A program made the translations under genes and the position numbers. Positions 5,634 to 61,665 of a DNA stretch of 64,000 nucleotides are shown piece after piece. This DNA comes from Ditylenchus dipsaci (Eukaryota > Nematoda > Chromadorea > Rhabditida > Anguinidae), in contig SADC01000942.1 in NCBI GenBank assembly GCA_004194705.1, forward strand, positions 1 to 64,000. Reading direction: 5' to 3'. Position 1 is the first letter of the stretch, and the number at the start of each line of letters is the position of its first letter. Under the pieces are notes generated by a model. The model did not search any database. It saw only the letters and a list, made by a program, of their open reading frames with translations, and was not told the origin of the DNA.

Positions 5634-6410
5634 GGGACACGGCCGTTTCGCCCAAAGTATCATTTCGCCCAAAATCTCGTTTCGCCAAAAATCATCAAGG
5701 CAATTATACTTTACATCTTAGTTCTAGTTATCGATAATTCGGCGCTAGTAGTGAATACCACCCCCTTCCCCCCCCCCCCCAACCTGACCTTATAGAAATC
5801 GCTGTAACTACCTTGCAAACAACAAGTTTAGGCTTAGCCCTTAGGCTTGGGGGTAGGCCAGCGTACGGAAGTTGTGACTAATAACTGTGTTACGCACTTT
5901 TTTACTTTTTACTTAAGTAAAAGGTGAAAATCGTTAATAATAATACTAAAACGGTGATTTGTTGAATCCAATAACCAGTACCTCGGAAGACACGTACCAT
6001 AATCGTAAGAGCCCAAGTGCACCCCCCCCCTCTCCCCTTCCAAAGAATATTTCTATAAGCCTACCATTTTCGGCTCCCTTGATTTTTTTCACCCCAATCC
6101 CTTGCGATGAAGTGTGTGTTGGTATTTGGCCGCGAAGCGTACCCTTGGTTTCTTTGTTGCAAAAGGTGTCAAATAGGTAAAAGTGAAAAAGTTAGCTTGG
6201 ATAAAGGTTATTTGATTCAGCGAATTGCTGTTTTGGTATTATTTAACCGTGTTTGCAACACAATTTAGGGTGGGATACGTTTTAATATGATTTTGTAATT
6301 AAAATTATTGATAACTAGAACTAAAATGTAAAGCATAATGGCCTTAATTATTTTTTGGGAGAAACAAACTTTTGGGCGAAACGATACTTTTGGCGAAACG
6401 ATACGGACCC
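5634..6410. mobile_element. Array-armed inverted-repeat element (TTTCGCCCAAA unit)
   Basis: The left end is GGGACACGGCCGTTTCGCC and the right end, read inward, is GGGTCCGTATCGTTTCGCC. Each arm repeats a GTTTCGCCCAAA-like unit three times or so, and longer inverted arms follow (about 5690-5740 against 6300-6350). An exact 8-bp direct repeat CTCGCAGA flanks it at 5626-5633 and 6411-6418. The centre has a C-rich stretch (about 5760-5780) and sequence shared with 47090-47170. No transposase is encoded, so it is non-autonomous. An 8-bp duplication with GGG ends suits a hAT- or Mutator-like mover. Confidence 0.85.
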
Positions 6411-6539
6411 CTCGCAGATACGTATCTCTAGCTTTCCAAACTTAGGGCTTGGAGCTCAAACAATTTTGACACATGATCGAAAAACTAAATTTAGCTCATT
6501 TTTTGCCAACAATTTTTTTGTTAAGTTGTGGTCCTCACC

Positions 6540-9500: not shown

Positions 9501-12500
9501 ATACCGCACAAAATTTGTATTTTGACGGTCTTCTTACAATTTTGCTGTGTTCTGTAATGTTGTTTTGCACAAGCGTACAGCCCTAGATCTTGTCTTTCTA
9601 ACGAGTTTTTCAACTGTATTGAATTAGTTGAGAAATGTATAAGTTTGAAGTTTTTTTTAAAATTACCCCATTTAAAGGACCATACTTGTTGATGACAACG
9701 TGATTTGGCAAATTCAAATGCGCGGGGACACTTCTTTTTACTCCAAAAATACTTTTTGAATTATGTGTTGTTGGAATATCATAATAAAAACATAGATTAT
9801 ATAAGTCACCCAGATAGCTCAGTGGTGTAGCAGGTGTACGATCAGTTCGCCCCGTTTTTTTTTCAAAATTTTTGATACATTTTGCAATAAAAATATTTTT
9901 TTATGGGAAAATTTTTTTTCTGGGACTCCTAATAGCTGAAATTTCCTCAGGAATCAGAATCAGACAACAGAATTTTAAAATAATTCTCGGTTGCTGAGAT
10001 ATGACCCAAAGTTAGGTGCTTGTCATTTTCAAATAAAGACTATCCAACTTTGGTTTATATCTCAGCAACCGAGAATTATTTTGAAATTCTGTTTTCTGAT
10101 TCTGATCCCTGAGGAAATTTCAGCTGCTAGGAGTCCCCAGAAAAATTTTTTTCTCATAAAAAATACTTTTATTGCAAAAAGTATCAAAAATTCTGAAAAA
10201 AACGGGCGAACTGACCTGTCTCCGGTGTAGCAGCGTAGTGCGGTGAATATCTGTCTCATGTTCGATTCCATGTCTGCGGTGTTATTTTTGATCATTTATT
10301 CATATGGATGATGGAAAAAATAATTTCGGAATAAAAAAAATGTCCCGCGCGCATTTGAATTTTCCAGATTCCCATTGTCATCAACAAGTATGGTGGGTAT
10401 ATGGCACTTCTGTCCGGACATTTCTGTCCGACACTTCTGTCCGGACAGTTCTGTCCCGGACAGTTCTGTCCCATTTCCAAATTTACTTATAATTTGCAAA
10501 TTAACCAAAATTTCAGTTTTAAATCTGAAAAACCATCATCCAAGATTGTTTTTATTGTGTGTATGAGTAAAACAATGTTACAATAATAAACTAGAAAAGC
10601 GCCAGTTGCATTCGCGGCATCTCCACACACTAAATCCTGACTTCAAGGTTGCATAAAAGCTTTTCTTATATCACTTTCTAAGTAACACTACCTAGGAATC
10701 ACTACATAATTACCACTATCTGAGTGCAATCACCTTGGTACCTTCGCCTGAATACCCCTTCTAGTCCTCCTCCATCTTGATACCATCCACTTAGATACCC
10801 GCTCCGGAGTATATCTCATCTGGATATACCCTCCTGAGGATCCCCTTCTGAATATTTTTCCCTGAGTACCATCAACTGGAAGCGCTTTCCTAAAAATCAC
10901 CACGTAGTTACCTCATCCTGGACGCCACCACCACACCTAGGTACCCCTTTCTGGGTATTCCCTCTTGGATGCCACCACCTTAATACCTCCTTCTGGGCGG
11001 TCTCCTGCTTACCCCTTCCTATGTGTCCCACTCTGGCTACTTTTCAATAAGTGTCCTTGGTTGATTATAACTTAGATTTCCCGCAGGTTTCAAACTTAAA
11101 TTTAGGATAATATGCAAATTTTAAGTAAATTTGGAAATGGGACAGAAGTGTCGGGACAGAAATGTCCGGGACAGAAGTGTCCGGATCCCAGTATGGTCCT
11201 TTAATGGCACTTTCTTACCTTTTTTTATAAAAATGTCGACGCTACTCGGTAATGCACCCGCCGAAAACCGAGTAGCGCCAAAATGTCCTTTATTTTAAAG
11301 TTTTGAATTAGGAGTTATGCATAAACCATTCAGTGAAATTTAAATTTAAAGCCAAGATCCAGGACTACATGCTTGTGCAAAACAACATTACAAATTTGTA
11401 AGAAACGTCAAAATACAAATTTTGTGAAGTATTTCAGTATTCTACTGCACGAAATTAATGTTATCCTTAAAAATTAAGCCGGCGAGTAAATTTATTTAGT
11501 GCGTAAATTTCCGCGTTTTTTCACGTTTAGTGTTTTGGGAGTTGGTAAGACATATTTTAGTCCCACCCAAAGTGCGCTGGCTCACGATGCGCCTAAGTCT
11601 TTGCCTAAATCTAAAAAATCAAAAAGATGCACCAAATAACCAAACATAAATGAAATCCAAAAGCCGCAAATCAAAAAAATTTACGCCAACCGCTAAACGC
11701 ACATATGCCGTCCTTTTTGTCGTCCTAAATTTCAGTCTGATCTCAAAAATTGCAAGGAATTCCTATTATGCATGTTGTTTTTGAGAATCACTGTGGAATC
11801 ACTAGACCCTAAATGCTTGATCTAAAGAACGCTCAAATCTATAAAGGGCGTAAATTAAATTAATTTTTGCAGGTCTCAATTAAAAACCATCGTAATCGGA
11901 GTTCTTTGCGATTTTGCAGGTAAGATTGAAGACGAATCAGAATGGACAATGGACTTTAAAAAACAGGTTAAAAAGGGTCGGATACAGCTAGAGAACGAAC
12001 TTTTTGGATGTGCGTTACACCAAGCGTTGACTGTATCATAAAATTTAAGGAAGAAATTGAACTAGAAGCTGGCATCACCATTTTCGCAGACGGATTGAAT
12101 AGCTTATCTGCATGTGGAAGTGTGCCTAACCCCAGTGGTCATCAGACAGAAGTTTACAGCTTACATGAAGAGCTGTATGAGCTAACTCCACAGATGCTTC
12201 AACCTGGGAATTTTTCCCTTTACCTTGGATACCCGTTTGTGAGTTATTTTCTATTATTTTGCTTGGATTAGCATTGTTTATCTGATATTTCTGTTGATAT
12301 AAAATCATAGAGCTGCGAAGGTCGGTGAACTTGCATCAGAACCGAAGGCCACCGCCAAAACGTCCCGGCAAAAAGGGCCCCATACAGATATGTATAACCA
12401 AAATGTAATTAACGGCTTTGTTCCAAAAAATATTCTAAATCATTCCAAATGTATCAGACAGTATTTCCTCTAATAAGCCGTCCGGCGGCTTATTTTTTAA

Positions 12501-15500
12501 TCACCTAGTAGAGAAGTGGCTTATTGGTAGGAGTGGCTTGTTATTCAACCGATAGACGCCGCAAAAATTCACGCTATGTTTCTCAAAAACTCGTGCCGGC
12601 GAAAATTCGGCCATGAAACACCTTGTCCATACAATTTCAAAACAAAAAGAAAATAGTGACGGTGAAACGCAGTGCACCCAGATTTCAGTTTTTTTGCGAA
12701 CAAATTTGTACCTTAACACTCGCCCTCCCAAGCATAGTAATTGCCATTTCTGACTCAGAATTTAACGGTAAACACGATGATGCAAAATTTTTTAGAAAGA
12801 GTTTAAGATGCTAAAAACTTCTTTCGAAAAGAGCTTGTTTTCGGTCACCCTGAACCACCAGAAATTTTGAGAAATTTAGATGGTACTCGCCGAACTTTCT
12901 ATTTAACCTAGACATGAAACCACTTAAAATATTGAGTGCATTCAGATATATCTATTGCGCACAAACTTGCAGCAGAGGGATCATAGTTTCACAGAGTACC
13001 GTATAACCTTTATTAATCCGGCCCCCTCGACTTTGAAGACCTTATCTCGGTCCAGGAAAAACATTTTGCAAACCTGTTTAATGCTATTTCTCGAATCCCA
13101 CGAGCTCTACCGATTTCGCTTTTCAGATTATGGGTTTACACCCAAAAATTTCGAGATCGACTCAAAATTTACCCGATTTTGATCTATATCCCGATCTATA
13201 TGGGGGTGTTTCGGCAGGGGATGTTTTGGCGGGGGCGTTTGAGGGTGGACCCCCGGTGAACTCATGTTGTCTGGCAATGTCAATCAACATTGGGTTCAAC
13301 TCGTTGATGGTTCAAAGTTTTGGGAAATTTTAAAACAGCTGTGAGTGCAAACAAAAAAGTATTCAAAAAATGTTTTTGGAGTAATGTAGCTATCACTCGT
13401 TAATTTAAAAAGTCAAGACTGCCGTGGCCATATCGTCAATGGTCCTCCAATAAGACCGCTTAAAAAATTTACAGCAGTTACTGAGTTTTGGTCATACTTT
13501 TGATAACTCTTTCTATTTCAGAGTTTTAGTGTCAAGCACTGTCGAATCGTCTATGTCACTGAGCTCAATGGTTATTTGTCAATCGCATTGTACTGCAGCC
13601 CTGGTCTTTCATATTTCCACTCTAAAAACGTAGGTATTTAATGGCCATGGACCTTTAAAATAGATATTTATAATTGCTTTAAAATACTTACCTCGTTTAC
13701 GCTTTCTCGCACCTGAATTTTTTAAAGTTACGAAAAAGAGGTTTCGATCCCGTTTTCTCTCCTCAACACAGTTAAAGAAAAACTTGTGAACAGTTTCTCA
13801 TTGAAAAATTCAGTGTTGTGCCTGAGAATTGAGTGAGAATTTGAAAAGTATACCATAACTTTTTTTAAATGAGGAAATTTTAGTTTTTGATATTTATGAT
13901 CTTTATCCCATTTTTAATTTTAAGTCTGTAATCTGCAATTAGATTTCAAGCTTTATTTGCAAAAATTTGAGATTTTCACCACTCTCACTAAGAAGTTACC
14001 TCAGTGAGCTCACTGAGAACTTTTCAGTGAGAGTGGTAAAAATCTTAAATTTTTGCAAATAAAACTTAAAATCTAATTGCAGATTACAGACTCAAAATTA
14101 AAATGGGATAAAGATCATAAATATCAAAAACTAAAATTTCCTCATTTAAAAAAAGTTATGGTATACTTTTCAAATTCTCACTCAATTCTCAGGCACAACA
14201 CTGGAAAAATTGAAACTTCCACCAAAAAGGTATTTTCGACTAAATTTTGGTCAAATATAAGAAAAAGTGGTAAATTTGGAAAAAAATCTATCTGGGGGCT
14301 ACTACGTATAGAAACCCTGTTATGCATGTGTATATTTTGGTACTAATGCCATTTTTCTTCCCATCCCTATCCATTATTACGTGATACACAATAAGTCCAC
14401 CTTTTGTAATATTTTAGACTCAGGCATGGGTAGGTCAGTATATGTTAAATCGGACTCAAATACTTTTTCTTACTTTTTCATATTTCAAGGAAAAAGGTTT
14501 GGGTCTGTTCTGAAATATGCTGCCCTACCCTTGCCTGAGAACGAGGGTCAACTGGCGGTCATACCAACTGGCGGCTATCTCGACTGGCGGCCCCCAACTG
14601 GCGGCTACTACGACTACTACCTATTACCCCGACTATCTGAAAGTGCACTAATTACCTGTATGGTATCTCAACCTTCGAGAACACATCTTCTGACCGAACT
14701 AGCTGTGCAGCGTGACCGCATAGACTCTTGATCTGCTTACCTAGGTGGTTGTACCCCGGCGGTGTAAAGGTTTCAAATTCAGGTAGTATTGCCCAGGCGG
14801 CGGTATCAAGACCTCGGTATCTAGATTGGAGATGGTAATATCTAGGACCTTATACCTAAAAAGTAGTACCTAAGTATCCATGCCAGGGCATTCTTAAAAA
14901 GGGCTCTTTTTCACCAAACATGTTTTTCTCACCTTTTTGCAGTTTGGGGACAACTTTGAGTCCGTCCTGACACACGCTGGCCTATCCTGCACCTAAGTGT
15001 TAACAAAAACGGGAGAACTGGCCGGACATCAGGCGCGTAGTGACGGTGCTGAAATATTTTCTAATTTCACAGTAAGTTTTAATTCCACTTCAATTAGAAG
15101 GGCAGCTCCCCTCCCCCCACAAAAATTTGAAATAGAAAATGACCGAATATAAGCAAATATGATAGGTTATATGACGGGTTCGAAAATGACGGACCATATT
15201 CCAACCCTAACCAAAACTGAGAGAAGTTAGACCCTTACTTCAATGAAAAACAGGCAAAATTGCATAGTGAGAACACCTCAAACTTCCACAGACCCGCCCA
15301 TTGTAAGAAACCTAATAGTCTTTTTTATATAAACCAGGAACAGTTGTCTCTTTTATACAGGCCGGAAACTATCGGCGCCGGGAGCTATTGTTCATATCCA
15401 CTTGTATTTGGTGGGTATAAGTTATGATGGCCGCCAGTCGGTGGCCGCCAGTTGGGATTATACTTTGCCTGAGCCTATAAATGTGATAAATCACCGACAA

Positions 15501-20668: not shown

Positions 20669-21080
20669 CAGTAGCTCCATTATACTCCCGCGGGACACGG
20701 GACAAATTGTATCCCGTGACTTTTGTCCCGCGACTATGTCCTGCGGGACAACGATATTGTCACGCGGGACAGAGTAGCGGGACAAAAGTCACGGGACACA
20801 GTCACGGGACACATTTTGGCTATTGTCCGCGGAACACCGACTCGCGGGACAACCCTAAGATTACAATAAATTTATTGAAGATGGCCGATATTCGGTGGCC
20901 TAGCGTGATAATTGGTACTTTTGACTCAGAATTGAATGCCCTACACGATGCCACCAGTGAACTCTACATCTGCAGCACCTATTACACCCACGCTTACATT
21001 CTACTCAGACTAAGACAAAATACTTTGCATACCATATAACTTTATTGAATAACATCTACAACAACATGTGCCGAACAACA

Positions 21081-22019
21081 CTAACACTCTTGCAGAGAAG
21101 CTTGGTATTCCTTTAGGCTCATTTCAGCAACTGACTTCTTGCGAACCGTATCGAATAGAGTTTCGGTAGGCTTCTCGGGCGCTTCCAACAAATGCTCCTC
21201 CAACTTGCTGATGAAATTACGGAGCTCTCCTATAGTAGAAATTTAATGAGCAAAAATTTAAAAAGAATATCAAGATTACTTTTGCACTCCAGCTGCATTC
21301 TCTTGTTACCTCCATTTTCGACTTGTTTGAGTAGCTCAGCAATTTCCACCGCCAACGGAGGCATCTTTCTCTTATTTTCGACGGCATTCATCAGGCGCTC
21401 AAACTCTGGATCAAACTTCTGCTTCTTGCTGATGGGAGACTTTGAAGGCGTTTGCTTGGCTAAGAAGGACGGCGTCGCATTGGTGGCTCGAATCCTGAAT
21501 TCAATCAATTGAATCAAGCCAATAATAATTCATAGTTTCTTACTGCTTGTCCGAGAACGTATTAACTGTGCGGAGAAAGGCCGTGGCACACCAGAACTTC
21601 CAATCAGGTTCAACCTCTTCAGCTCCATTACCAGTCTTTCCTTCAACCCTATAACGAGTGCGACGATGCGACGAGAGAACATTATCCCAGATTTTCTTGA
21701 GAAGAGCAACTAAAAACAACGTCAATTAAACAGCTATGTGAATTTCACTGGTTGCCATACCTCCAAAGCACTGATCTGTATATGCCTCACGGAAAGACTG
21801 CTCGATACTCAGCCAATCGGACTGCTTCTTCGACAGGCTAGGACAGTCGGCGTTTGTTGGATCCCACAAAATTGGCTTTTCTTCAACCAGCCCGATCAGA
21901 AACTCTTTGTGATTATCGGTAACATCAGCGATAGTGGACAGCTTGGCTAGCTTCTCATCAGTCGATTTTTTGCTTTTCTTAGCAGCTTTGCTCAAAGCAC
22001 TCTCCGTTACTGACGACAT
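21081..22019 (-). CDS. MADF-domain accessory protein of the Harbinger element
   Basis: Four - strand exons keep one frame: 22019-21761, 21709-21544, 21494-21310, 21229-21081 (252 aa). It starts MSSVTESALSKAAKKSKK, a basic Ser/Lys head. A MADF-like fold follows: FLIGLVEEKPILWDP at residues about 38-52, then SIEQSFREAYTD, then LLKKIWDNVLSSHRRTRY and WCATAFLRTVNTF. The third exon holds PSFLAKQTPSKSPISKKQK, a flexible basic linker, and a helical ELLKQVENGG. It ends ...YQASLQEC. MADF/Myb-type partners of Harbinger transposases bind element DNA and bring the transposase to the nucleus. All four exons are open, with no visible damage. It is transcribed in the same direction as the transposase, about 140 bp from the transposase's stop. 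Confidence 0.85.
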
Positions 22020-22156
22020 TTTCTGAAATATACGTGATTGGCAGAAATAAAAACATCCAAGCATATGAAAGCGACAACAATCACAACAAAAGAAGATATC
22101 TGGGATATTCAACGAAAAAAACAAAAGAAGTGCCAGTCAAACCATCTTTATTTACC

Positions 22157-23545
22157 TCAAACAACATCTTGAACACCTCTGATCACAACATCAACAAATC
22201 GATCTCGAATCAATCTTCCTTGCCACCCAGCTTCAGGCGCTCTTTGATCAATAAGCATTCTTCTGTCGTCCGGGAATCTTGAATTGAGATCTTCTTCTTC
22301 AACTGGATCCTTCAGAAAATTATGCAGAATCACGGCAGCCAGAGTATAGAGTCGAGCAGTTTCTGGCCTGAAACGATGACATACTGATTCACTATGTGAA
22401 CCATGAAACAGACTTACCTGGCTTCGATTGTTCCTAAAAAAATACGCCACCTTTTTGCGAAGATACCAAATGCGTGCTCCACTGCACTTCTTGCCCTGCT
22501 CAATTGACCATTGAACGCGATCTTTTCTTGTGAGTCGGCACCTCTATCTGTGAAAGGAGTCAGGACCTTAAATAAAAATAGATCAAATAGATTCTATGAT
22601 TGAGATATATTGACCTAAATATACCAGATCTGTGCATCCGAATCCACCGTCCCTGAGGAAAATAAACGGTAGCGAACCCTCTTCATTTGGTGGCAAAGCA
22701 GCTTCGGGCGACCCCAGGGAATGTCTTAATGGGCTTGAAATCTAAAGCGTTGAATCGCTGTTTCGACCAGAAGCACCAACATCCACCATCAGAAAGCGAG
22801 ATTCCGCATCCGCAATGGCCAAAAGAACAATCGAGTAGAACTTCTGAAATCACGGAAGCATAATGGCACAAGAACCGACATTAAAAAAAACCTTGTAGTT
22901 GAAAAATGCTGCTCCCGAGTGCTCAGGTTTCACAATCGCGATATGTTTCTTGTCTATAGCCCCCAAAGTCTTCGGAAACTGTCTGAGTCGATTGAATCTC
23001 TCCGCGCTTCTCTCCCACGTTTGACGAGTTGGCGTTGGCAAGTACTCCGTCTGCATAGCTGTGACAATCGCTTCTGATACCTCTTTGCAGATGTCATGCA
23101 CCGTGGAATCACCGATCACGAACTGAGGAGCCACTGCGCTATAGGTTGGACCAAATGCTATGAATCTAAGAAAGTTTTTGAAATGACAACAATGGCTAAA
23201 CGTGTTGCTAAGTATGTTGCCTGATAAAAACTGCCAGACGTTCTTTTCCCTCTATTGGCCTAAGATGCGTAGGACAATGTGCTTCTAATTGACGACGAAC
23301 CTAAAACAAGACAGACAAGACTAGATCCAAGCTGTGATAGCAAACAATTCATGTAACATACAAGTGAATAAATCATTTCAAACTCTGTTAGGCTGAGTCG
23401 CAAAAATCGCTTCAAGTAACCTTCATCCGGACTGCTGTAGTACCTCCAGAAAACTGCGAAGGAATTGCGGTGGAGAGCACTTTTATAATGAGCCGGTCTG
23501 ACGTAGCTTCTTTTCTTACGCAAAGCCCACCAACCAATAGCTTCT
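22157..23545 (-). pseudogene. Harbinger DDE transposase with one in-frame stop
   Basis: Exons on the - strand: about 23545-23362, 23300-23221, 23165-22892, 22843-22625, 22566-22418, 22367-22157. The order is LRKKRSYVRP, SLTEFEMIYSL, FGPTYSAVAPQF, then PTPTRQTWERSAERFNRL and FPKTLGAIDKKHIAIVKP (first Asp), VLLAIADAESRFLMVDVG (second Asp), IFLRDGGF, and RARSAVEHAFGIFAKRWR (the Glu), then LAAVILHNFL. The whole DDE_Tnp_4 core is present. Damage is limited to a TAG at 22744-22742 after GRNSDSTL, just past the second Asp block. The donor after 23221 is GC rather than GT. The 5' end is uncertain because no in-frame ATG precedes the first block. Its enzyme would cut and join element ends at 3-bp targets; this copy cannot make full-length protein unless the stop is read through. 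Confidence 0.88.
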
Positions 23546-24374
23546 TCCAATTAGAAATTTTCCATTTATCTAAAACGTGTACTATAACACGGCGAAAACG
23601 GTTGCCTTCAATATCGATCACAGCTTTAGCAAAAACGAAAGAGAACACGCGAAACTAACATTAAGAGAAATGTATGAGAATCGTTTTTTTCCAGACTTTA
23701 CTGAACACAAAATATTGTCCCATGACTTGGTGTCCCGCGGGACAAAAAAGGGTGTCCCGCGAGTTTGTCACGCATCTCGAAACTGTTGTCCCGCGGCACA
23801 ACAAAATTTTAGAATTAAGTTTGTCCCTTGACTCATGTCCCGCTTCTCTGTCACGCGGGATATAATTGTTGTCCCGCGGGACATTCAAAAATTATACCTA
23901 AATTTTGTCCCGTGTCTCGTGTCCCGCGGGAGTATGAATGGAGCTAGTCAAACCTCGATTTAGTGGCACCCCCCAAAAGTTCGTTCCCGCCTAGGGTCCG
24001 ACACTTTTTTTAACCCAATTTGCAAAATATTTTATCGATTCTGTTATGATAGTCTGGTCGCAAATATCGTGAGGATTCCGATTTTGCCGATCGTTTTTTG
24101 AAAAGTAAACGAAGTTTGGATTAAAAAAGTGAAACCTCGATATAGTGGCACCCCTTTTTTGAAAACAGGTGCCACTATATCGAGGTTTCACTTTTTTAAC
24201 CCAAAATTCGTTTACTTTTCAAAAAACGATCGGCAAAATCGGAATCCTCACGATATTTGCGACCAGACTGTCATAACAGAATCGATAAAATATTTTGAAA
24301 ATTGGGTTAAAAAAAGTGTCGGACCCTAGGCGGAAACGAACTTTTGGGGGTGCCACTATAGCGAGGTTTGACTG

Positions 24375-24912: not shown

Positions 24913-26494
24913 GGGGGACACGGACAATTCGCCTCCGGGCCGATTCGCCTACCGGGACAATTCGCCTCCGGCCGATTCGCCTCCCGGGACAATTCGCCTC
25001 CAATTACATTATTTATCTCCTGTTCAGTCTGTCTATTCACTCCATGAACAATAAGCTTATCCTTAGTTTGTATTTTTGCAGAAAGGGTAATATTGTAGTT
25101 GTATTGCATTAATTTTTATAACATTTTTGTCAATTTATCACCTAATCGCCCTAATTTTCTCATGTTGTTGTCCACATGGTTCATTTAGATGGTCCACTTG
25201 GATCATGGAGGTCTCCAGCTAGTCAAAAAAATTTCAGCCACTAAAGTTACTCAAATTTTAGATACTTTCATCAAAACAGCTAGATACATGATATATCTCA
25301 TATTTAGATGGTTTAGATAAACTGACAACCATTTGACCAAATGGACACTCATATGAACCAAGTGGATACCCACCTCGTGTGTTTGGTGTTGCATCTCTTT
25401 TTTAAATTGAATTTTATACCATGTATTCACCGGAAACCTATATAAAATGGACAATTGCTCCCTGTTCATAAAGGCATTCTTACCCTGCTCAGATAATAGA
25501 GACAACAATTATTTGACTTCAAAATTGATCAGGCTATAACCAACTTTAGCTGCCTTTCTTTTGATCCAAGTGGACGACCACATGGTTTAGTTAGTGCATG
25601 GATTATCCATGATAACTAAAGTTGGATCATAAAAAAACATTTTAAATTTTAAAAGTTCTTTACAAGACGAAATATTACTATCCTGGTACCGCTACACTAC
25701 CTGAGTACAGCAAAATCAGGTGGTCGTCAATTTGGTGCAAATTTTTTTTACGTTTTTCATATTCCGAAACGTGTTTTCTTGACTAATTTGGGCATGCTAA
25801 AGATGGTTCGATAATAGTAAAAGAAGGTTTTGTATCGTATTTTTTAGTTATTGGGAAATAATTGAACTTGCCAAAACTAGAAAATAGCTTACAAAACGGC
25901 ATTTCACCACTATCAAACCATCATCAGCATTCCCGAGTTAGTCTAGAAAATAGGTTTTGGAACCCAAAAAAGTAAAAAAAAAGCTCTAAGTGGACGACCA
26001 CTTGGTTTGGTCGGTTCAGACTACAAAATTTTTCAAAATGTACGAATTTGAAAAAGTGTGGACCATTTTGTGTGTGGTCCAATTCGGTATGGATCAGTCT
26101 GGTGTGGATCGATTCGCTTAACACCCGTAAATGAATATACACCTCGACGAGGGATACCTACCTCCATTTGTGGAGATCGCTTCAGTGAACTCAAAATTTA
26201 CATTTGATAGCATGGTTGGTTTTCGATTTAATTTTTTTTCAAATTTTCAGGCCATCCACGTGAACATACACCTGACCTGAAGGTACCTACCCTGGGTTTT
26301 GGGGTCCGGATGGGTGAAATCGCGGTTTCGGTCCTGTCAAACAAGATTTACCACACAATTTCACGTCGAAAATAAGGGTTTGAATGTGGTATGTTGACTG
26401 TGACTTTTCAAAAATTACTTCTACTACTTTTTTTTTACCGGAGGCGAATTGTCCCGGGAGGCGAATCGGCCCGGAGGCGAATTGTCGCGGACCC
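24913..26494. mobile_element. Array-armed element (GGACAATTCGCCTCC unit)
   Basis: The left arm (24913-25003) repeats GGGACAATTCGCCTCCGG and GCCGATTCGCCT. The right arm (26443-26494) carries the complement and ends GCGACAATTCGCC-type sequence then GGACCC. Outer ends are GGGGGACACGG and, inward from the right, GGGTCCGCG. No clean target duplication is seen. Inside is an inner foldback (about 25560-25990) whose halves share CCAAGTGGACGACCAC and ..AAACCATC..CAGCAT words, a motif recurring at 52.4-52.7 and 59.3-59.5 kb. Confidence 0.75.
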
Positions 26495-27233: not shown

Positions 27234-30200
27234 ATGGCCTCTCCTCTAACAAGTGAGCGAAATACTGACAGCTTTGCAATTGTCCTCAAGAATAAATTTC
27301 TAATCGACATGATGTCCGCTGGCAGTGCTGCTGCTGGCGCGAAATTTGGTTTGGCTTTTGTTCAAAACGTCAAAATGACTCCAAAGGTAATATACAGGGA
27401 CGACTATCGGTTCGTGGTACTTAATGACGGAACTTTTGGAAACGTTTATTAAAAAACATCAATTTCATAAGGAAAAGTTTCTTAAAAGTCACCTCAAAAT
27501 CCAAAATCTCATCCTGAATCCGAATCCGTTTGAATCAGATAAAAATAATTCTCATAAGCTGAGGTATCCATCTCAGTAGGCCAAGGGTGCGACTTTTCTG
27601 AATTTTTCACTCAGAGTTCTCAGCTTACTATATCTCAGCTTACAAAAATTATTTTCATCTGATCTCAACGGATTTGGATTCAGGATGAAATTTTTCAATA
27701 GGGGTGACTTTCATAAAACTTTCTCTTATAAAATTGATGTTTTTCAATAAAAGTTTCCAAAAGTTCCATCATAAAGTACCATGAATAGATATTTTACCAA
27801 TTTACAGCACATAAAAGTTATGCAGTTCAAGTCTTAATATAAAGTAGCCACGAAACTGTCATATACCAACCCCTTCTTAAAAGCTACTGTAATATTCCCC
27901 CTCCCAACTTGACATTTTTAGAAGTGTCTAAAAACCATTTTTATGCAATTACTTTGCCATAAAAGGTCCCAAAAAGCAATTTAAAAAAATTAAGGGGCTG
28001 TTATGGGACTTCCTTAATGGGAGGGGGAGGGAACGATACCAGGGCCACTTTTAGAGTACCTTTTTGGCTGCTTTACCATGTTTTTCAACTCGGGCCGTGG
28101 CAAAAATAGACTCTGTATGCATTTTTTGATCAAGAGTATTTCTCGGAATCGACTGCCCAGCGATTGGGTACACATTGTGATTGGGTACAGCGGTTGGGTA
28201 CAATTGCGGTTGGGTACAGCGATTGGGTACAGTTTAAAAATTAGTTTTCAATTTATTTAGTCCCACCGCATGTTTTTTGAAATTTTTTCACTTAGGCTTA
28301 ACCTTAGGGTAAATGCTTTTGAATTCCAGGTCTTGTTTTGTTGGAAACCAAGCTAAGAAATCCGTACAGAGGTTCGAATATTCAGAAAAATCTTCGAATT
28401 GGCGGGTACAAGGTTTGAACAAGTGACCCTTTGAAGACACATTTAAAACACTATTAAAAGGTACTGAAATATTTGTACCAGAGCTCGGAAAGTGTCTTAA
28501 AACATTTTTTAGTCCCGGCTAACATACGCTGGCCTAGATCAAGCCTAAAATTAGAACAGTCACAGCTATTTTTATATCTAATAATTTATGGGGAGGGGAT
28601 GTTTTCTTTAATAGCGCTAAAAAAAGGACAAGAAAAATTACACGTTCGAGCCCGTCCTATCGAGCACTGGTCTACCTAGCACCTAAGGTTGGACGACCTG
28701 CGACTCGCTACAAATTGTTGTACCAGACCAATTGTTGGCCGCTTCGCGGCCAAGACCAGCACACTCCACATTGCAAGGGATAGGGGAGCATGTACAGGGT
28801 TATTCAAGAAATTGTAACACTTTCAAACTGCCATAACTTTTTATCCCGGCACGATTTCGAAATTTTGTAAACGCAGATCGACTCAGAATTTCATGGCAAT
28901 TTTTTTGGTATATAATGTCAAAATCACGATTTTCGCTTGGTCCCCCCTGTGGTTTTGGTCTTGGTCTGTGGATGGCCTCTGGATGGGTAAGACCAAAACC
29001 ACAGGGGGACCAAGCGAAAATCGTGATTTTGACATTATATACCAAAAAATTGCCATGAAATTCTGAGTCGATCTGCGTTTACAAAATTTCGAAATCGTGC
29101 CGGGATAAAAAGTTATGGCAGTTTGAAAGTGTTACAATTTCTTGAATAACCCTGTAGTACATGTTTTTGGTGAAATGGACAAAAAAGTTAAAGTGTAGCG
29201 AGTCGCAAAAAGTGTAGCGAGTCACAATTGTAGCGAGTCGAAGTTTTACCCTAAGGTTAAGCCTAAGTGAAAAAATTTCAAAAAACATGCGGTGGGACTA
29301 AATAAATTGAAAACTAATTTTTAAACTGTACCCAATCGCTGTACCCAACCGCAATTGTACCCAACCGCTGTACCCAACCACAATGTGTACCCAATCGCTG
29401 TTTTACCCTCGGAATCATGTCTAAGGTATGTGGGTGTGCGCATCTCAACTCCAATCCCCAGAGCCCCCGAAGGTGGCGCAGGGGGCTTGGAGTGATGAAT
29501 AGCAATTTTAATGTCAAAAATGATCAAATATTTACGAATTTTTTTATTTTAAAGCTGTCGGATGTCTATTACACTTCTGCAGCAACCGATCAGCATAAAT
29601 ACAAGGCCATCTTGAAGATCCTGACACAGACTCCTAAAGAGAGAAACTCTGCAGCTCTTTGGCAGGCCAACTTTATCCGCTGCTGCTCGACCCAATCCCT
29701 AAACTTTGCTTTCAAGGATTCTTACAAGGAGCTCTATTTCAAAGGGTTGGTTGAAATTTAAAAAATTTAACGCGGAGAAGTAATATAAAAGTAATAATAC
29801 GAAAAATATACATTTCGTGTAACATTTCACGCTAAACAAAATGGTGAAAAAATCGTAAATGGAATATTCAACGGGTTTCTACATTTTTCGAACGCTTTTG
29901 AAAAGGTTAGAATTAACGCCCCCGCGGTGAGTAATATATTAAAATCCATGGCGTATTCAGGGCTATCTATTGCAAACAAATTTGTAGCATAGTGATCACA
30001 ATTTCACAGAAATTTTATTAAATTTCCCTCTAAGAACTAGTTTCCAAAAATCTTCAATTTCGACACTAAAATGCCCATCAGCTGTTTTTATTTGAGAAAA
30101 GTAAGAGTAGAGAATTTCGGTTTTTCACAATAAGTGCAGCAATACTTTGAATTAAAACCGTGACAAATAAAAACCAAAAAACAAACACATAGAAATATCA

Positions 30201-39966: not shown

Positions 39967-40165
39967 TCACCCGCAGGCAAATATGGCAGCAGGGCTCGGC
40001 AAAAAATTTTAATTTTAAGAAATTAAATGTTAGATGAAAGCAAACTGGCAGCATGTCCTGCTGACCTATATATTGACCTTTTGTGTGAACTATAAATTTT
40101 AGCGGATATTGGGACAGAATTTATTACTTGTGTTAATTTATATTTTAAAACTGAAATCAAAAATA

Positions 40166-51512: not shown

Positions 51513-52160
51513 CTAATCGGTGTGGCGGACTTAATTAAAATTTCATGCCAACCATCTCTTCCTATTAAAATAATTCTCTCAGAACTTTCAAGTAGAAACA
51601 AACTCTTTTTTTTTGAAACACGTTTGTTTATCATGTTGGTTATTACAAAATAGAATATAGCCCGGTGGAATTTTGTACACATAACTAAAGTCGTTGAATT
51701 GGCCAACAATTGAAAAAAGGCCATTCGCCGGGAAAACTCTGAGCTGAACCAGTTGAGCTAGTTTTCAATTTAGAAATATTTTTTGAAAGTCACATCTAAT
51801 AGAAGAATGCCTTACTGAATCCGAATCCACTGAGACCAGATAATAAAAGTCAAGGAGTTGAATTGTAACTGCTAGTGCTGAGGAAATAGGGTTTTGAAGT
51901 GTTGCAGTGCAGTATTTTTGAATGACCCTTGGTGCAGTTCAGTATTGCAGTGTCAAAAATTAGTATATGCAGTGTCGCAGTGCAGTGTTTCATGGTGATA
52001 CAGTATACTGCAGTCTTTGATGATACTTCTATTTCAATGTGCAGTAACAGCTAATTTTGAATCGGAAATCAAGTCAATCAAACATTTTATTGCTTTCCAA
52101 ACACAATAACAATAATCGAGGAGCTCCTGCTGCTACACGTTGGTTACTGATTCTCTCTAA

Positions 52161-53591: not shown

Positions 53592-53750
53592 CCGTATTTC
53601 CTCTAATTATGCGGCCCCTCCTAATTTAGCGGCCCCCCCCTTGTTTTTTGACTAGGATTTCAGAGTTAGGGCCATTTTTGATTTACAATTTCAAGATTTT
53701 CGGGCATCCAAAAAATTTAGCGGCCGGCCGCATAATTAGAGGAAATACGG
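53592..53750. mobile_element. MITE with CCGTATTTCCTCTAATTATG ends
   Basis: CCGTATTTCCTCTAATTATG then GCGGCC on the left and the exact complement on the right, TA flanks, 159 bp. The C-rich interior is not coding. Confidence 0.88.
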
Positions 53751-54735: not shown

Positions 54736-55048
54736 CTTAATTTGGCCATCCCGAGAATTCGGACCACCCACATGCTGCAAAGGAAACCCCAGCCCTTGCA
54801 TTTTTTGACACGACTTCGGTACTCAAGACAACATTTTGGTACTACAGTAGCACCTTGCCTACCAATCACCCCCTAATTGACACGACACAAAGCCTGAAAA
54901 TCCAGAACTTTTAAACACATGGCCAGAAAATTCAGCAAAGCAAAAAACAACGTTTTCGAAAGTGGTTTTATTTGACCAAACGCTGTACAGAGCAAAGAAC
55001 TATAAACACACAATGAAAGAACGAATAACTGAAATCTGTGATTGTTGC
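54736..55048. other. 3' flank of the FAM32A-like gene
   Basis: Read on the - strand, AATAAA is present at about 54966-54971, a plausible poly(A) signal about 80 bp past the stop. Nothing else supported. Confidence 0.5.
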
Positions 55049-55971: not shown

Positions 55972-57072
55972 ATCGCAGATGGCTTACACTGAAAATGTAA
56001 GTAGCTAGTCTGGTAAAAAATGAAGAAATTAATAAAATTAGCGACAAAGTACATGAAAGTCGATTTGTCTACAAAATTAAGCACGAAAGGACTATCCTGA
56101 AACACTGAGTAATTTTGTCGTGAATTTCCATAAAGCAATGTGCAATCCTCTCCGACTATGTCGCTGAGCCACCATGACTCAGCAACTGAATGACTAGGAA
56201 GTTCCTAGTAGGAACCACGCCCTCTCTCAGCAACACTGTATGCCTAAGGGCCTCAGAGAGCCTGAATATCCTTGCGATGTGGCGTAAACAGGGTTCGTAA
56301 TTGCCCTTTTTTCGAAACCCAAAATCTTTTGGCAGTAACTAATTTCACCCGTCAAAATACTGATTTACCCTGTCAAATAAAAAATAAATTGTTTCTTTTA
56401 TGTATTTTTCAAAGTTATTGTTAAAAAAATTCAAATTTTTTACCAGCATGTAGCCATGGATCTCAGCTTTCTAACAATTCATAAATTGACTTGATAACAT
56501 TTTGAAAAATTGCAGAAACAGGTCCTTGCATAAATCTCTTTTTTTTGAAAAATTTGCTTTATACAAAGACCTTATTATGCAACTTTTTGAAATTTCGTAA
56601 ATTCGGTTAATAACTAGTTAGGAAGCTAAGATTCAGGCCTACATTTTAGTATATAAACTAAAAAAACATGTAAGACATGTAAAACATGTAACATATAAGA
56701 AAACAAAAAAATTAAAGATTTGACGGGATACATCAGTAATTTGACGGGGCAAAACAATTTGAGCCAAATCTTTTTTATTTTTGAAGTTTTTAGTCAAAAT
56801 CTTTTTTTTTGCTCCAAAATTGCAATAAGCACTGGATAAAATGATATAAAATCTTTTTACCCGAATGTCCTTTTTTTCGAAATTTTTCATTACAAACCCT
56901 GGGCATAAACAATTTTCAAAGCACAGACAAAACAAAAAATAATAATTTAAGCCAATGTAATAAACTTCACAATAAAGAAGTTTCACGGTGACACTTCGCC
57001 AAAAATTAAATTTTAACAGCCATTTTGAAATGTATTTGTTTCAAAAGCGTTCAGCGTTGGCCAGTCGAGGAT
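55972..57072. other. Upstream flank of the FAM32A-like gene
   Basis: No gene recognised. 56330-56640 and 56730-56900 hold AT-rich inverted words around ATCTTTTTTTTTGCTCCAAA, also seen near 34330-34380. The promoter of the FAM32A-like gene must lie at its left edge. Confidence 0.4.
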
Positions 57073-57651
57073 CAGGGATGAGAATTTATGGTTAACTAGG
57101 CCTTTTTTCAAATACATCAACCGGCCTAAAATAGGCCCGTGCCAATTTGAATTAGACTTAGGCCTAAATAGGCCTATCTTAGGCCTAATAGGCCTAATTT
57201 TAGACCTATTTTTTTGGCGGGAATTTGAAATACATTTAATTTTCAGACGATTTTTTTTGCTTTTCGCAAATTTTTCATTTTTTTCCTCAGAATTTCACCC
57301 TAGAGTGGACAAAAGCCACTGAAAGTTAGTTTTCTAGAGGTTTACCAAAGGGAGGTAAACATTTTTTGACCATTTATGGGTATTCGCCATCTATCTCGGT
57401 GAATCGATTATTTGCAACATATTTTTAGGAAAATGATAATTTTAGCTTCGGATTAATGTTCAGCATGCTCGATTTACTTGTAAAACTGCTCTTAAAGGTC
57501 TAACATTATCGTAAAGTTTCAAATTACTCTCGAGACAAAGATGATTCAAATATGGAATTTTCTGAGTAGTTTAAATGTTTTTTGTCTCGAGAGGAATTTG
57601 AATTTTACGATAATATTATACCTTTAAGAGCAGTTTTACAGGGGGTCAGTA

Positions 57652-57835
57652 AAAATGCCAAAACAAAAATGCCAAGAGCAAAAATGCCAAGAGCAAAATG
57701 CCAAGAGCAAAAATGCCAAGAGCAAAAATGCCAAGAGCAAAAATGCCAAGAGCAAAAATGCCAAAAGCAAAAATGCCAAAAGCAAAAATGCCAAGACAAA
57801 AATGCCAACGAAAAAATGCCAACAGATATATTGAC
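57652..57835. repeat. 15-bp minisatellite AAAAATGCCAAGAGC, left arm
   Basis: About eleven units of AAAAATGCCAAGAGC or close variants. Because 15 is a multiple of three it is open in several frames and gives repetitive MPRAK-like translations, which are not taken as protein. The inverted copy is at 59725-59885. Confidence 0.9.
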
Positions 57836-58231
57836 AGCAATAGCTCCGGTTCTCTGTCTAGTCTTCGCGTCAATCTTTTAACTATTCCATACTAGCACTT
57901 TGCCTTTTAGTTTTTTTCGATTCGAAAAGTCGAATGCTTATGTATAAATTTCTGAAATGTAGAAGAGAACCTGCTGGTACCTCCAGCATACGAAATTTCG
58001 GACTCAGCTAAAAGTAAAATTTGTGCGCCTTCAAAGTGTTCCAAAATATTTGGCCAACCCTGTAGAAAAACGTTAATACAGCAATGCTTTTACATAAGAC
58101 AGCATTACAAATTGTAATTTACAATGAATTATTTACAGCTATCTCTACAAGTAACCTGCAAACGCTTGAATATATCTATTCACGAAAAAGAGGAATAGGT
58201 CGGCAGTGCTGTCAAAAATAAAAATGGTGGG

Positions 58232-58872
58232 ATGGAGCTTAACCAGTTGGAAGGGGAGCATGCGCTTGTGCCAGCCTGATCGTTTTGGGTGTAGAAGCCA
58301 GATTCCGACAAGTGGAAGCCAGTTGATAAGCAAACGGTATGTCTTTCTTTGCCTCGCACAAATGACATCTCTTGATTCGTCTGTCTTCGGCAAAGAAAAT
58401 TCACTTCTTCATTGTTCTTAGGGCAACGAATGGTCGGTTTGTCTTCACAAGCTGTGCTCCATCAATACAATCGAAATCTTCTGGGCTCTCTAGCATCGTG
58501 TAATCGCCGCTAACCAGCTTTGCTATGGTATTATTTTGAACACTTGTTGCGATCACCTACTGAAGTTTACCTTTTTAGGAACCGACTACATCTTCTTTCG
58601 AGAGGGAATCAAGCCAATTTCGGAAGAATATCAACGGTGGGTGCTCTTCATAGATGTGAAGAGAGCTTGTCAGGTTCGCCTAATTTCCTTTTGTGTTTTT
58701 TGTCTCGTTTCACGTCTATTGTTTGTAGCACACCAAGTTAAATCGCTACTGGCTGGAACTGCTCATTGCCATTCTTGGAGGACAGTTCAATGAATACAAC
58801 AATATATCAGTGGCGCACTCCTCAATTTTCGCTTCCTCAATGTTTTTAACTTTGTTGTTGAATGATGAATAA
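58232..58872 (+). pseudogene. eIF4E: eIF4E-like gene copy with three in-frame stops
   Basis: Four exons with intact GT/AG borders and matching phases: 58232-58336, 58422-58527, 58579-58673, 58729-58872 (150 codons). Translated blocks follow the mRNA cap-binding factor eIF4E: KPDSDKWKPVD (Trp as cap-stacking W56), NTIEIFWAL (the W73 that eIF4G touches), GTDYIFFREGIKPI, RWVLFIDVKRACQ and HTKLNRYWLELLIAILGGQF then NEYN. Three codons are stops: TGA at 58277-58279 where the family has the first Trp of RWALW, TAG at 58292-58294 at the aromatic of WFFK, and TAG at 58491-58493 at the Tyr of FWALY. The second cap-stacking Trp (W102) is Ser. After NNIS the sequence leaves the family and stops at TAA with AATAAA overlapping. 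Neighbouring genes use all three stops normally, so code change is excluded. It sits between hAT arms. Confidence 0.85.
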
Positions 58873-60523
58873 ATTGTGTGTTCGAGGTCGTTCCGTGCTG
58901 TTCATTCGATTTTGAGAAAGCTGCCGCTGTGTGAGGGAAGTTTATATGATGTGGCACTTTTTAAGTTCCTCTATATGGCACTCTTGGGTCCGCGACGTTT
59001 CGTAAAAAATTATCGTACCCTATCTAGAATCGAGCCCTGAACATGATTTGATAACGCTAAAAAATCGACTTGACTGACAGGAAGATCAGTTCTGAAATAT
59101 TTTCGTATCCCGTAGGGTATCCAGATGGTAGACGGAGGCGGTGGTACCGAGAAAGTGGTACTCAGGTGGTAATACCAAGGCACTGACCATGTATCGTACT
59201 CAGGTGGAGGTGTCTAGATAATGGTACTTGGATGGTGCTTAAAAATGGTCGTCCATTTAAATCAGAAAAGTTCACGCTTTTTAGGTTCCAAAACCTGTTT
59301 TCTGCACTAATTAGATCATTCTAAAGATGGTTTGGCAGTATTAAAATTACATTTTGCAAGATTTACAAAAACTATAAAAATACCATCAAAACGTAGTTTC
59401 ACTTCTGTCAAACCATTTCTGAAATGCTTGAATTAGTGCAGAAAACAGGTTTTGGAAGCCAAAAACAAAACAAAAATTTGATCCAAGTGGACTCATCGAG
59501 GATGGATATGCACCGTTGAGTGTAAAGATAAACCATAAAGGGTGAATGTCATTCATTTATGAAAGCACAAAGACACACAAGGAGTCCCCGAAAAAATGTA
59601 ACGCCAGGGAGCTCAATTGAAACTTCTATATGAGTCAAATACGTAGCAAACTTTCGATTAAACATAACTACTTTATAAGGAAACAAGACTAGGCCAGAAT
59701 CGCAGGAGTTGCAGTCAATATATCTGTTGGCATTTTTGCTGTTGGCATTTTTGCGTTGGCATTTTTGTCTTGGCATTTTTGCTCTTGGCATTTTTGCTCT
59801 TGGCATTTTTGCTCTTGGCATTTTTGCTCTTGGCATTTTAGCTCTTGGCATTTTAGCTCTTGGCATTTTTGTCTTGGCATTTTTACTGATAACCGTTTTA
59901 CAAGTAAATCGAACATGCTGAACACGAATACGGTGCTAAAATTGACAAATTCCTGAAAATATGTTGCAAATAATTGATTCACCGAGATAGATGGCGAATA
60001 CCCATAAATAGTCGAAAAATGTTTAGCTCCCTTTGGTAAACCTCTGAAAAACTAACTTTCAGTTCCTTTTGTCCACTCCAGGGTGAAATTCCGAGCAAAA
60101 AATAAAAAATTTGCCGAAAAGCAAAAAAAATCGTTTAAAAATTAAATGTATTTCAAATTCCCGCCAAAAAAATAGGCCTAAAATTAGGCCTATTAGGCCT
60201 AAATAGGCCTAAGATAGGCCTATTTAGGCCTAAGTCTAATTCAAATTAGCACGGGACTATTTTAGGCCGGTTGATGTATTTGAAAAAAAGGCCTAGTTAA
60301 CCATAAATTCTCATCCCTGTCGAGGATGCGTCAAAAAAATTTCCACATTTCTCAATTTATCCGACCATTCTCCAATAAATCGGTGAAGAGCGGACGTTTT
60401 ATCGAGCGTCGTTATACCGAGAATAAACTATAGTTTCGCCAAAATAATGACTTTTTCGAGACGTTAGATCGAGCGTCGTAATAACGAGCGTCTAATGTAG
60501 TGCACTTTTTACGCGTCCTCAAC

Positions 60524-61665
60524 GGCAACCGGACAAAACAGGTTTATAAAAGTATTTGTCGCGCGACAAAAACGTTTTTTAAAAGTATTTGTCGCGCGAC
60601 AAAATATTTTTTAAAAGTATTTGTCGCGCGACAAAAACGGCTTTTTTCCGGATTTGTCGCGCGACAAAAACGGCTTCTTTCCGGATTTGTCGCACGACAA
60701 AACCGACTTTTTCCCGTTATTATCGCGCGACACAAACGGTTTTTCCACTTTTCAATTCTTTAATTCTTTAACTGAGTAAACGGGTCTCCAGTAAATTCGG
60801 CCATGGTAAATTCATCCCCTAGTAAAGACAAGAGTTCAAATCTACCTTGTAGAACTACTTTTTGGTTTGATCAATTTTTTTTCCTAACATAGGATTCGAT
60901 AAGGGATTGGGTTTGTTAAGATTAAATTATGATTTTGCCTACCCAAACTCCAAATCCTGGGTTGGGTACCCTAGTCTCAGGTGGATATCCAGCTGACCCG
61001 AAATGTACCATTACGGGGTTCGGGAGGGTAAAATCACATTCTGGTCTTGACAAACGCAATTCCCTACAGAATTTTGAGTAAGAAAAAAATTTGTTTTTAC
61101 TCTCTATTTTATTTTTATTTCTCAGGTCATCCACGTTGGTATTCAGGTACCCACCCAAGGATTTAGACTTTTGACTTAACCCCCCGTCAGATTAACGGGG
61201 GGGGGGCGGCGGACAAAAAAGGGGGGACACATACGAGAAAAAAATTTTAGGACATTTTACCTACAATGTTTCCATTTTTGACTAAGAAAAAATCTGACGG
61301 GCGCGGCACGTGCACACCTGTCCCCCCCCCCCCCCTGGCTACGCCAATGCAGGTGGATATCCAAGATATCCCACACAAATATTAGAAATTGTCTGGTAGC
61401 CGCACAAAGAGCAAAGAACGTCAAGTGAGAACCAAAAAACCATGCTTGTCTCGCACCAAATCAGGAAAAAGCCGTTCTTGTCGCGCGACAAATCAGGAAA
61501 AAGCCGTTTTTGTCGTGCGACAAATCCGGAAAAAACCGTTTTTGTCGCGCGACAAAATATGTAAAAACCGTTTTTGTCGCGCGACGAAACATGAACGACA
61601 AAAACGGTTTTTTCCGTTTTTGTCGCGCGACAAATACTTTTAAAAACCTGTTTTGTCCGGTTGCC
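60524..61665. mobile_element. Array-armed element (GTCGCGCGAC palindrome every 33 bp)
   Basis: Ends GGCAACCGGACAAAACAGG and complement; 8-bp duplication TCCTCAAC at 60516-60523 and 61666-61673. The left arm holds GTCGCGCGAC or one-base variants at 60558, 60591, 60623, 60656, 60689 and 60722, spaced 32-33 bp. The right arm holds them at 61480, 61512, 61544, 61576 and 61622. The centre contains G- and C-homopolymers (61196-61207, 61321-61334) flanked by CCGTCAGATT words. No protein encoded. Confidence 0.9.

What the first reader, a model, noticed from the sequence alone, without database searches (positions are those of the whole stretch)
5634..61665. A recurring architecture: inverted-repeat transposons whose arms are private tandem arrays
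At least nine elements share one plan: short terminal repeats, then in each arm a tandem array of a 10-20 bp unit, inverted between arms, with a non-coding or borrowed centre. Each element uses a different unit (TTTCGCCCAAA, TGTCCGGACA, ACTGGCGGC, GATTGGGTACAGCG, GCAGTATTGCAGTG, TTTACGCCCTCAAATT, AAAAATGCCAAGAGC, GTCGCGCGAC). All are bordered by exact 8, 9 or 10 bp direct repeats that I located to the base. The Harbinger at 20.7 kb has the same arms with a 3-bp target. That different superfamilies converge on the design suggests arrays grow in element ends generally, possibly as cooperative transposase-binding sites, or that some replication process expands them. The elements and duplications are seen directly; the mechanism is inference.
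Basis: partly seen in the sequence, partly recalled or inferred. Interest (0 to 1): 0.82.

Follow-up and report, generated by a model that had tools for sequence, protein, structure and literature searches.

The report
Nematode Mutator transposons with tandem-array ends
Many small mobile DNA elements in a plant-parasitic nematode carry mirror-image tandem repeats at their two ends; most look like members of a known Mutator/Foldback kind, and in some families the outermost bases stay alike while the repeat units change.

Summary
The observation largely holds. Of 12 candidates checked in the window, 9 have exact 8-10 bp target-site duplications; E4, E5 and E9 do not. Empty sites exist for E6, E8 and E7. 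Four families searched genome-wide are dispersed with facing ends or paired arrays, not satellites. The genome is probably Ditylenchus dipsaci. All 4 MULE-transposase loci fetched, of 115 matches, sit between inverted tandem arrays. Best reading: mostly non-autonomous Mutator/Phantom elements of Foldback type. That plan is in print: Tm1 in Meloidogyne (PMC3169594), Muta in Aedes (PMC5225508). Convergence of superfamilies is weakly shown: two elements are hAT-like by ends only, and one Harbinger lacks a clean array. Perhaps new: five families with different units share two unlike 9-bp end caps; outside the elements that gave the motif, 11 of 27 B caps have an A cap within 5 kb, all 11 convergent, about 0.5 expected, though at least two of these are one family. 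Transposase binding and array growth were not tested.

The parts
5626..5633 (+). E1 left TSD CTCGCAGA
5634..6410 (.). E1: non-autonomous element, ends GGGACACGG / GGGTCCGTA, unit TTTCGCCCAAA (17-bp period, about 3 copies per arm), arms 5644-5739 and 6303-6400
6411..6418 (+). E1 right TSD CTCGCAGA
10387..10394 (+). E3 left TSD AGTATGGT
10395..11189 (.). E3: ends GGGTATAT / GGGATCCG, unit TTCTGTCCGGACAG
11190..11197 (+). E3 right TSD AGTATGGT
14531..14539 (+). E12 left TSD TTGCCTGAG
14540..15464 (.). E12: unit ACTGGCGGC, 3 exact copies left and 2 inverted right (not called by TRF), unlike outer ends AACGAGGG / AGTATAAT
15465..15473 (+). E12 right TSD TTGCCTGAG
20672..23946 (-). E4: PIF/Harbinger-type element (DDE_Tnp4 relative 22850-23248 -, MADF 21726-22133 -); arms with GTCCCGCGGGAC-like words, array called in the left arm only, no TSD found
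24915..26494 (.). E5: ends GGGACACGG / GGGTCCGCG, unit GGACAATTCGCCTCCG; no TSD here; two copies of this type elsewhere have 8- and 9-bp TSDs
28142..28150 (+). E6 left TSD CTCGGAATC
28151..29407 (.). E6: unit GATTGGGTACAGCG-type, arms 156 bp 99% identical; inserted in a high-copy repeat whose other copies are empty
29408..29416 (+). E6 right TSD CTCGGAATC
33077..33084 (+). E7 left TSD GCTGTATC
33085..33997 (.). E7: hAT-like ends TAGAGTTGTG, unit ATGTCCGGACAT (12 bp); empty relatives of the site at about 37850 and 38810 of the window
33998..34005 (+). E7 right TSD GCTGTATC
52151..52160 (+). E8 left TSD TTCTCTCTAA
52161..53211 (.). E8: ends GGCTATAGGTG / GGCTAAAATTC, unit ATTTACGCCCTCAAATTACTT; dispersed family; empty site on C381
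53212..53221 (+). E8 right TSD TTCTCTCTAA
54578..54720 (+).
57065..57072 (+). E10out left TSD TCGAGGAT
57073..60319 (.). E10out: hAT-like ends CAGGGATGAG, AGGCCTA-type arrays in both arms; E10in is nested inside
60320..60327 (+). E10out right TSD TCGAGGAT
57641..59894 (.). E10in: ends GGGGGTC / GGTTATC, unit AAAAATGCCAAGAGC, 11.7 and 10.7 copies, TSD GTTTTACA (57633-57640, 59895-59902); multi-copy family
60516..60523 (+). E11 left TSD TCCTCAAC
60524..61665 (.). E11: ends GGCAACCGGACAAAACAGG, unit about 33 bp with GTCGCGCGAC palindrome; second copy nested in L081
61666..61673 (+). E11 right TSD TCCTCAAC

Best explanation
Most of these elements (E1, E3, E5, E6, E8, E10in, E11, E12) are non-autonomous Mutator-like (MULE, Phantom type) transposons with Foldback-type ends. 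Each end is a short cap next to the target-site duplication, followed in fixed register by a tandem array of a family-specific unit, mirrored at the other end. A FLYWCH-MULE transposase from autonomous relatives is inferred to bind the array units with its zinc finger and to cut at the cap, inserting with an 8-10 bp staggered cut. Shown: borders, duplications, empty sites, dispersal, MULE frames between such arrays in 4 of 4 fetched MULE loci (3 families), shared caps in five families. Inferred: which MULE moves each family, binding of units by FLYWCH, and that slippage or unequal exchange inside arrays changes their length. E7 and E10out are probably hAT-type, by ends and duplication only.
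For: TSDs in 9 of 12 window candidates, with a mismatched-pair control. Empty sites: E8 at C381 (92% across the junction), E6 at 33 of the 40 places scored, the other 7 being the window's own six flanks and the E8 site; E7 and the L081 copy of E11. MULE loci: L083 (unit GGACAAAACACCGCC, 8-bp TSD), L085 (unit TCGTTTGTTCGAAAAGT, TSD 8-10 bp by choice of border), L086 (unit CTTCATTTCGTAACAG, 8-bp TSD), and L084 with the unit of L085 but no exact TSD. Pfam: MULE in frames of L083, L084, L086 and at C40:10332-10565, inside L085; FLYWCH in L084 and L085. E1 and E5 share caps with L084/L085. First base common to both arms at the same offset within 1 bp in 16 of 16 element copies tabulated. Cap pairing outside the source elements. 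Published parallels: Tm1 (PMC3169594) and Muta1, active in yeast with 8-9 bp TSDs (PMC5225508).
Against: No MULE remnant was found by tblastn inside the window elements. By eye on the listed places, no MULE match lies in a listed E8, E10in or E11 copy except at L086, where E8 is a nested guest; the nearest others are 2.5 kb (E11, C586) and 4.2 kb (E8, C48) away. So membership of E3, E6, E8, E10in, E11 and E12 rests on duplication length and end structure. E12 starts with A, not G. Only 4 of 115 MULE matches were looked at, picked for open frame, score or copy number before their ends were seen; a further MULE-like stretch in L084 (230-652) was not assessed. FLYWCH was not found by Pfam in the L083 frame scanned. 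No binding data.
Confidence: 0.78

Rival explanations
1. Arrays are passive by-products: slippage or unequal exchange at element ends makes short arrays in any inverted-repeat element, with no role in transposition.
For: Array length varies widely between copies whose aligned cores are 90-99% identical, and arrays also occur in two hAT-like elements and weakly in a Harbinger-type one.
Against: The register of array and end is kept at both ends even where the outermost bases differ, and caps stay alike while units diverge, which slippage alone does not predict. L077/L078, a duplication with 4372 of 4375 aligned bases identical, shows no gap of unit size in its arrays.
Confidence: 0.3
2. Several superfamilies (MULE, hAT, Harbinger) independently evolved the same array-bearing ends.
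For: E7 and E10out have hAT-like ends (TAGAG, CAGGG; motifs recalled) with 8-bp TSDs; hAT domains are common here (150 matches, the number scored, of 2005 candidates); E4 is Harbinger-type. The Tm1 paper names Galileo (P), FARE (MULE) and Mcmar (Tc1/mariner) as separate cases.
Against: No transposase could be linked to E10out, none was sought for E7, and E4 has no clean array or TSD. Autonomous array elements were fetched only through a MULE search, so their being MULE says nothing against this rival.
Confidence: 0.45
3. The arrays are dispersed satellites or an assembly artefact, unrelated to element borders.
For: Small indels are frequent in the assembly (52 gap columns, 19 of them at one end, in the L077/L078 alignment). 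Three of the 17 fetched E10in loci lack one of the two arrays (one of them partly masked).
Against: Of 17 fetched E10in loci 14 hold both arrays, all 14 with one end of each kind, and 12 of the 14 have a duplication of 8 bp or more at the element ends, L077 and L078 being one insertion. E11 ends face each other in 24 of 24 neighbouring pairs within 6 kb. E8 dimers number at most two per place among the 100 of 107 listed.
Confidence: 0.03

Closest known systems
Tm1, Mutator/Foldback family of Meloidogyne (PMC3169594; abstract, passages and sections 6, 9 and 11 read)
   Same: Unlike 7-bp motifs at the two outer ends, then 1-9 tandem units of about 14 bp, number varying between arms; 9-bp TSDs on most; FLYWCH-MULE transposase; mostly non-autonomous; a plant-parasitic nematode
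   Different: Different unit and caps; several families here rather than one; arrays up to about 21 units in E10in; histone-hairpin elements were not looked for
Muta families of Aedes aegypti (PMC5225508; passages read)
   Same: 8-9 bp TSDs; 8-10 bp terminal motif plus tandem subterminal units in Muta1 and Muta5; 10 of 12 long-TIR families have 9-15 bp tandem repeats; FLYWCH in 13 of 14 families; derivatives with variable repeat number
   Different: Insect; Muta1 was shown to move in yeast, nothing was tested here; whether Muta ends are unlike was not looked up
Foldback of Drosophila, TU elements of sea urchin (recalled, no sequence compared)
   Same: Long inverted arms built of short tandem units
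   Different: Not compared
Galileo (PMC3573991, abstract) and Tetris (PMC4079207, abstract)
   Same: Foldback-like ends with internal tandem repeats
   Different: Galileo has a P-type transposase; Tetris units are about 220 bp and seed satellites, which was not seen for the families searched here

Membership tests
MULE (Mutator-like, Phantom type) | MULE transposase domain between the ends | tested here: met
   PF10551 in L083, L084, L086 and at C40:10332-10565 in L085. Met for the autonomous relatives only; no window element has it.
MULE (Mutator-like, Phantom type) | 8-10 bp target-site duplication | tested here: met
   E1, E3, E12, E6, E8, E10in, E11; L083, L085, L086. Not met for E5 in the window and for L084.
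MULE (Mutator-like, Phantom type) | N-terminal FLYWCH zinc finger | tested here: inconclusive
   Found in L084 and L085; no Pfam hit in the one L083 frame scanned for it; not scanned in L086.
MULE (Mutator-like, Phantom type) | place in the Phantom clade of a transposase tree | not tested
   No tree was built; protein relatives of L084 are FLYWCH/MULE proteins of nematodes, insects and mites.
Foldback type (structure) | inverted arms made of short tandem units | tested here: met
   not met for E9 and E4, weak for E12
Tm1 | unit CGATTCAGTATCCGC and caps CGGTTAA / CCTACCC | tested here: not met
   Compared by eye with the 16 element copies: none has this unit or cap pair; E10in has GGTTATC at one end, close to CGGTTAA. 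No genome search with the Tm1 unit was run.
hAT (E7, E10out) | 8-bp TSD and TAGAG/CAGGG ends (motif recalled) | tested here: met
hAT (E7, E10out) | hAT transposase in the family | tested here: inconclusive
   None of the 150 listed hAT matches lies inside the 22 E10out end pairs. Not tested for E7.
PIF/Harbinger (E4) | DDE_Tnp4 transposase and MADF/Myb partner | tested here: met
   88% identity over 76% of the piece to a D. dipsaci DDE_Tnp4 protein, although Pfam itself gave no hit to that piece; PF10545 24.6 bits
PIF/Harbinger (E4) | 3-bp TSD | tested here: inconclusive
   The script looked for matches of 6 bp or more and listed none; a 3-bp one was looked for by eye only and not seen.

The most novel reading that the evidence does not exclude
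In this nematode a group of MULE families keeps one unlike pair of end caps (A GGGACACGG, B GGGTCCGCG) and a unit framework (C at position 11, TT at 14-15), while the rest of the array unit diversifies: the cap would be the constant cutting site and the arrayed unit a changing address that co-evolves with the FLYWCH finger, letting sister families escape each other's transposase.
Probability: 0.33. Interest if true: 0.6.

Novelty: new member of a known kind. Interest (0 to 1): 0.42.

Why it matters
It suggests that Foldback-type ends are a common plan of this nematode's MULEs rather than a curiosity of one family, and it offers related families with constant caps and varying units, which makes the old question of why Foldback ends carry arrays testable by simple binding assays. 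If the cap/unit split holds, it would suggest how families of one superfamily separate within one genome.

Tried and rejected
Rejected: arrays as satellites for the families searched; E9 as an element of this plan. An early note of mine said that the duplicated loci L077/L078 differ in array length; the alignment shows 4372 of 4375 aligned bases identical and no gap of unit size in the arrays, so that claim is withdrawn. Autonomous copies of E8, E10in, E11 and E10out were sought by comparing listed places with listed MULE and hAT matches, by eye and in part by script; none was found, but all these lists are capped. Empty sites: 7 joined flanks were made, 6 were searched; E11 was not. E1 and E10out gave only their own flanks, E12 its own flanks and two weak matches that stop at the junction, E3 a repeat that stops at the junction; each search scored only 40 candidates, most of them taken up by a repeat in E3's or E6's flank, so absence is not shown. 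Results against the cap rule: L001, an E1-type pair, has similar A-like ends (GGTACACG) on both sides and no TSD; L007 has B- and A-like ends (GGATCCGTA, GACACGGG) and no TSD; no TSD at the ends was found for L001, L007, L009, L022, L026, L031, L033, L074, L076, L079 or L084. Two of the four A/B pairs whose ends were fetched (C1, C39) have no TSD and unlike units in the two arms. The A-cap word also lies in other repeats (facing A/A pairs about 380 bp apart), so its raw count (1642 against 746 in the reversed control) does not count these elements; B is 428 against 263. Pattern searches for E3, E6, E7 and E12 copies were not made or not answered.
Full report
Setting. The window is C938:1-64000 of a 227-Mb eukaryotic assembly. 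A piece of its Harbinger-type protein is 88% identical to a Ditylenchus dipsaci protein, a MULE frame has its best hits there (55% identity), and size, contig number and G+C fit the published D. dipsaci assembly (227.2 Mb, 1,394 scaffolds, 37.5%; PMC6929663, whole text read; here 226.98 Mb in 1,359 contigs). The name is an inference: the genome bears none.

Observation. Tandem arrays with inverted partners are real. Twelve candidates were examined: E1, E3, E4, E5, E6, E7, E8, E9, E10in, E10out, E11, E12. Nine have exact duplications of 8-10 bp at their borders. E4, E5 and E9 do not, and E9 has no inverted partner. In a scan of 255 kb of held DNA, 22 of 44 inverted-array rows show an exact match of 8 bp or more near the edges against 4.7% of 1796 mismatched pairs. 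Some elements give more than one row, a few matches lie in array sequence, and many held loci were fetched for an array family, so this tests borders, not abundance.

Insertions. Joined flanks find an empty E8 site on C381, continuous across the junction at 92% identity with a single TTCTCTCTAA, and E6 proves to lie in a dispersed repeat that is uninterrupted at 33 of the 40 places scored (6 others are the window's own flanks, 1 the E8 site). E7 lies in a repeat with two empty relatives in the same window (single GCTGTATT there), and a second copy of E11 sits in an E10in-type element at a place that is uninterrupted in five other copies compared. E1, E12, E10out and E3 gave no empty site in searches capped at 40 candidates; E11 of the window was not searched.

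Families. The E10in dimer has 161 exact matches and none in the reversed control. Seventeen loci were fetched; 14 hold both arrays. In these 14 (13 independent, since L077 and L078 are a duplication) each copy has one end of the type GGGGGTC/GGGCGTC (GGGGTAAG in L074 and L080) and one of the type GGTTATC, with 4.9 to 20.9 units per arm; cores are 90-99% identical where they align, which is 38-100% of a core. Of the 14, 12 show an exact match of 8 bp or more at the ends; L074 and L079 do not. E8 has 107 dimer matches, none in the control, at scattered places. E11 ends give 100 matches, and all 24 neighbouring pairs within 6 kb face each other, 102 to 2505 bp apart; E10out ends give 96 matches with 22 facing pairs, 2 back-to-back and 2 in the same direction.

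Transposase. PF10551 gives 115 matches (150 of 504 candidates scored). Four loci were fetched, picked for open frame, score or copy number before their ends were seen: L083, L084, L085, L086. All four have the MULE frame between inverted tandem arrays; three have a TSD (L083 8 bp, L085 8-10 bp by choice of border, L086 8 bp), L084 none that is exact. L084 and L085 are one family, so this is three families. FLYWCH is found in L084 and L085. No MULE remnant was found in the window elements.

Caps. Sixteen element copies tabulated with their borders have the first base common to both arms at the same offset, 4 of them with a difference of 1 bp. Several begin at offset 0 because the whole end is an inverted repeat, so the informative ones are those with unlike caps (E1, E3, E12, E6, E8 and its copy in L086, E10in, L004, L024, L083, L085). 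Five families (E1, E5, L004, L024, L085) share cap A (91% mean identity over positions 1-9) and cap B (83%), falling to 41% and 38% at positions 17-24. Over 14 ends (two of the seven elements were found through the cap words) C stands at position 11 in 13 and TT at 14-15 in all 14. Outside the elements that gave the motif, on contigs C1-C51 the exact B word has 27 sites and the A word 99; 11 of the 27 have an A within 5 kb, all 11 convergent, against 0.49 expected for that orientation. Ends of 4 of the 11 were fetched: two are E5-type with 8- and 9-bp duplications, two have no duplication and unlike arms. So part of the 11 is one family, and the test supports paired unlike caps rather than many independent families. 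L001, an E1-type pair, has A-like ends on both sides and no duplication, against the rule.

Reading. The plan is in print for Tm1 (PMC3169594), Muta (PMC5225508), Galileo and Tetris (abstracts). The Hermes hAT paper (PMC10368747, abstract and outline) describes binding of subterminal repeats by zinc fingers at one end only, a precedent for unlike ends. Dupeyron-type MULE classification (PMC6446971, passages) lists Phantom with FLYWCH in some and 8-10 bp TSDs. Eight paper searches were run; their listings, which for one search show 15 of 331 papers, showed no report on such elements in Ditylenchus. Only open-licence papers were searched, so I do not claim that there is none.

Noticed in passing
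window 8541-9487: 88-bp inverted pair, 95% identical, ends TATTGGGTTGTAA: looks like a Tc1/mariner-type MITE with TA target; no array.
   Followed up: no
window 62096-62535: 39-bp inverted pair next to TTAA on both sides: looks like a TTAA-target MITE (piggyBac or Kolobok type, recalled).
   Followed up: no
window 44601-45068: Frame with a SKI/SNO/DAC domain (54.4 bits), probably an exon of a dachshund homologue.
   Followed up: partly
window 47722-48111: FLYWCH-like frame under the Pfam cut-off (20.7 of 23.6 bits); may be a domesticated or broken MULE.
   Followed up: no
L086 182-1233: An E8-type element nested inside the left array of a MULE element, with a 9-10 bp duplication made of array sequence.
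   Followed up: partly
L081 903-1978: Second copy of E11 inserted in an E10in-type element, TSD ATTGACTGC.
   Followed up: yes
L024 and L026: E5-like arrays CCGGGACAATTCACGC of up to 28 units in one arm.
   Followed up: partly
C48:59501, C52:250125, C53:220877, C105:76908, C156:138101, C202:256082: The B-cap word GGGTCCGCG falls inside E10in copies, away from their ends; unexplained.
   Followed up: no
C6, C15, C25, C29, C32 (places): Facing pairs of the A-cap word about 380 bp apart, some doubled: probably a separate small family with symmetric ends.
   Followed up: no
L077 and L078 (C429): Duplicated stretch about 9.4 kb apart, 4372 of 4375 aligned bases identical, each with the same E10in-type element and TSD.
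   Followed up: yes
L084 230-652: A second MULE-like stretch upstream of the L084 element, with short arrays at 1599-1713; its ends were not assessed.
   Followed up: no
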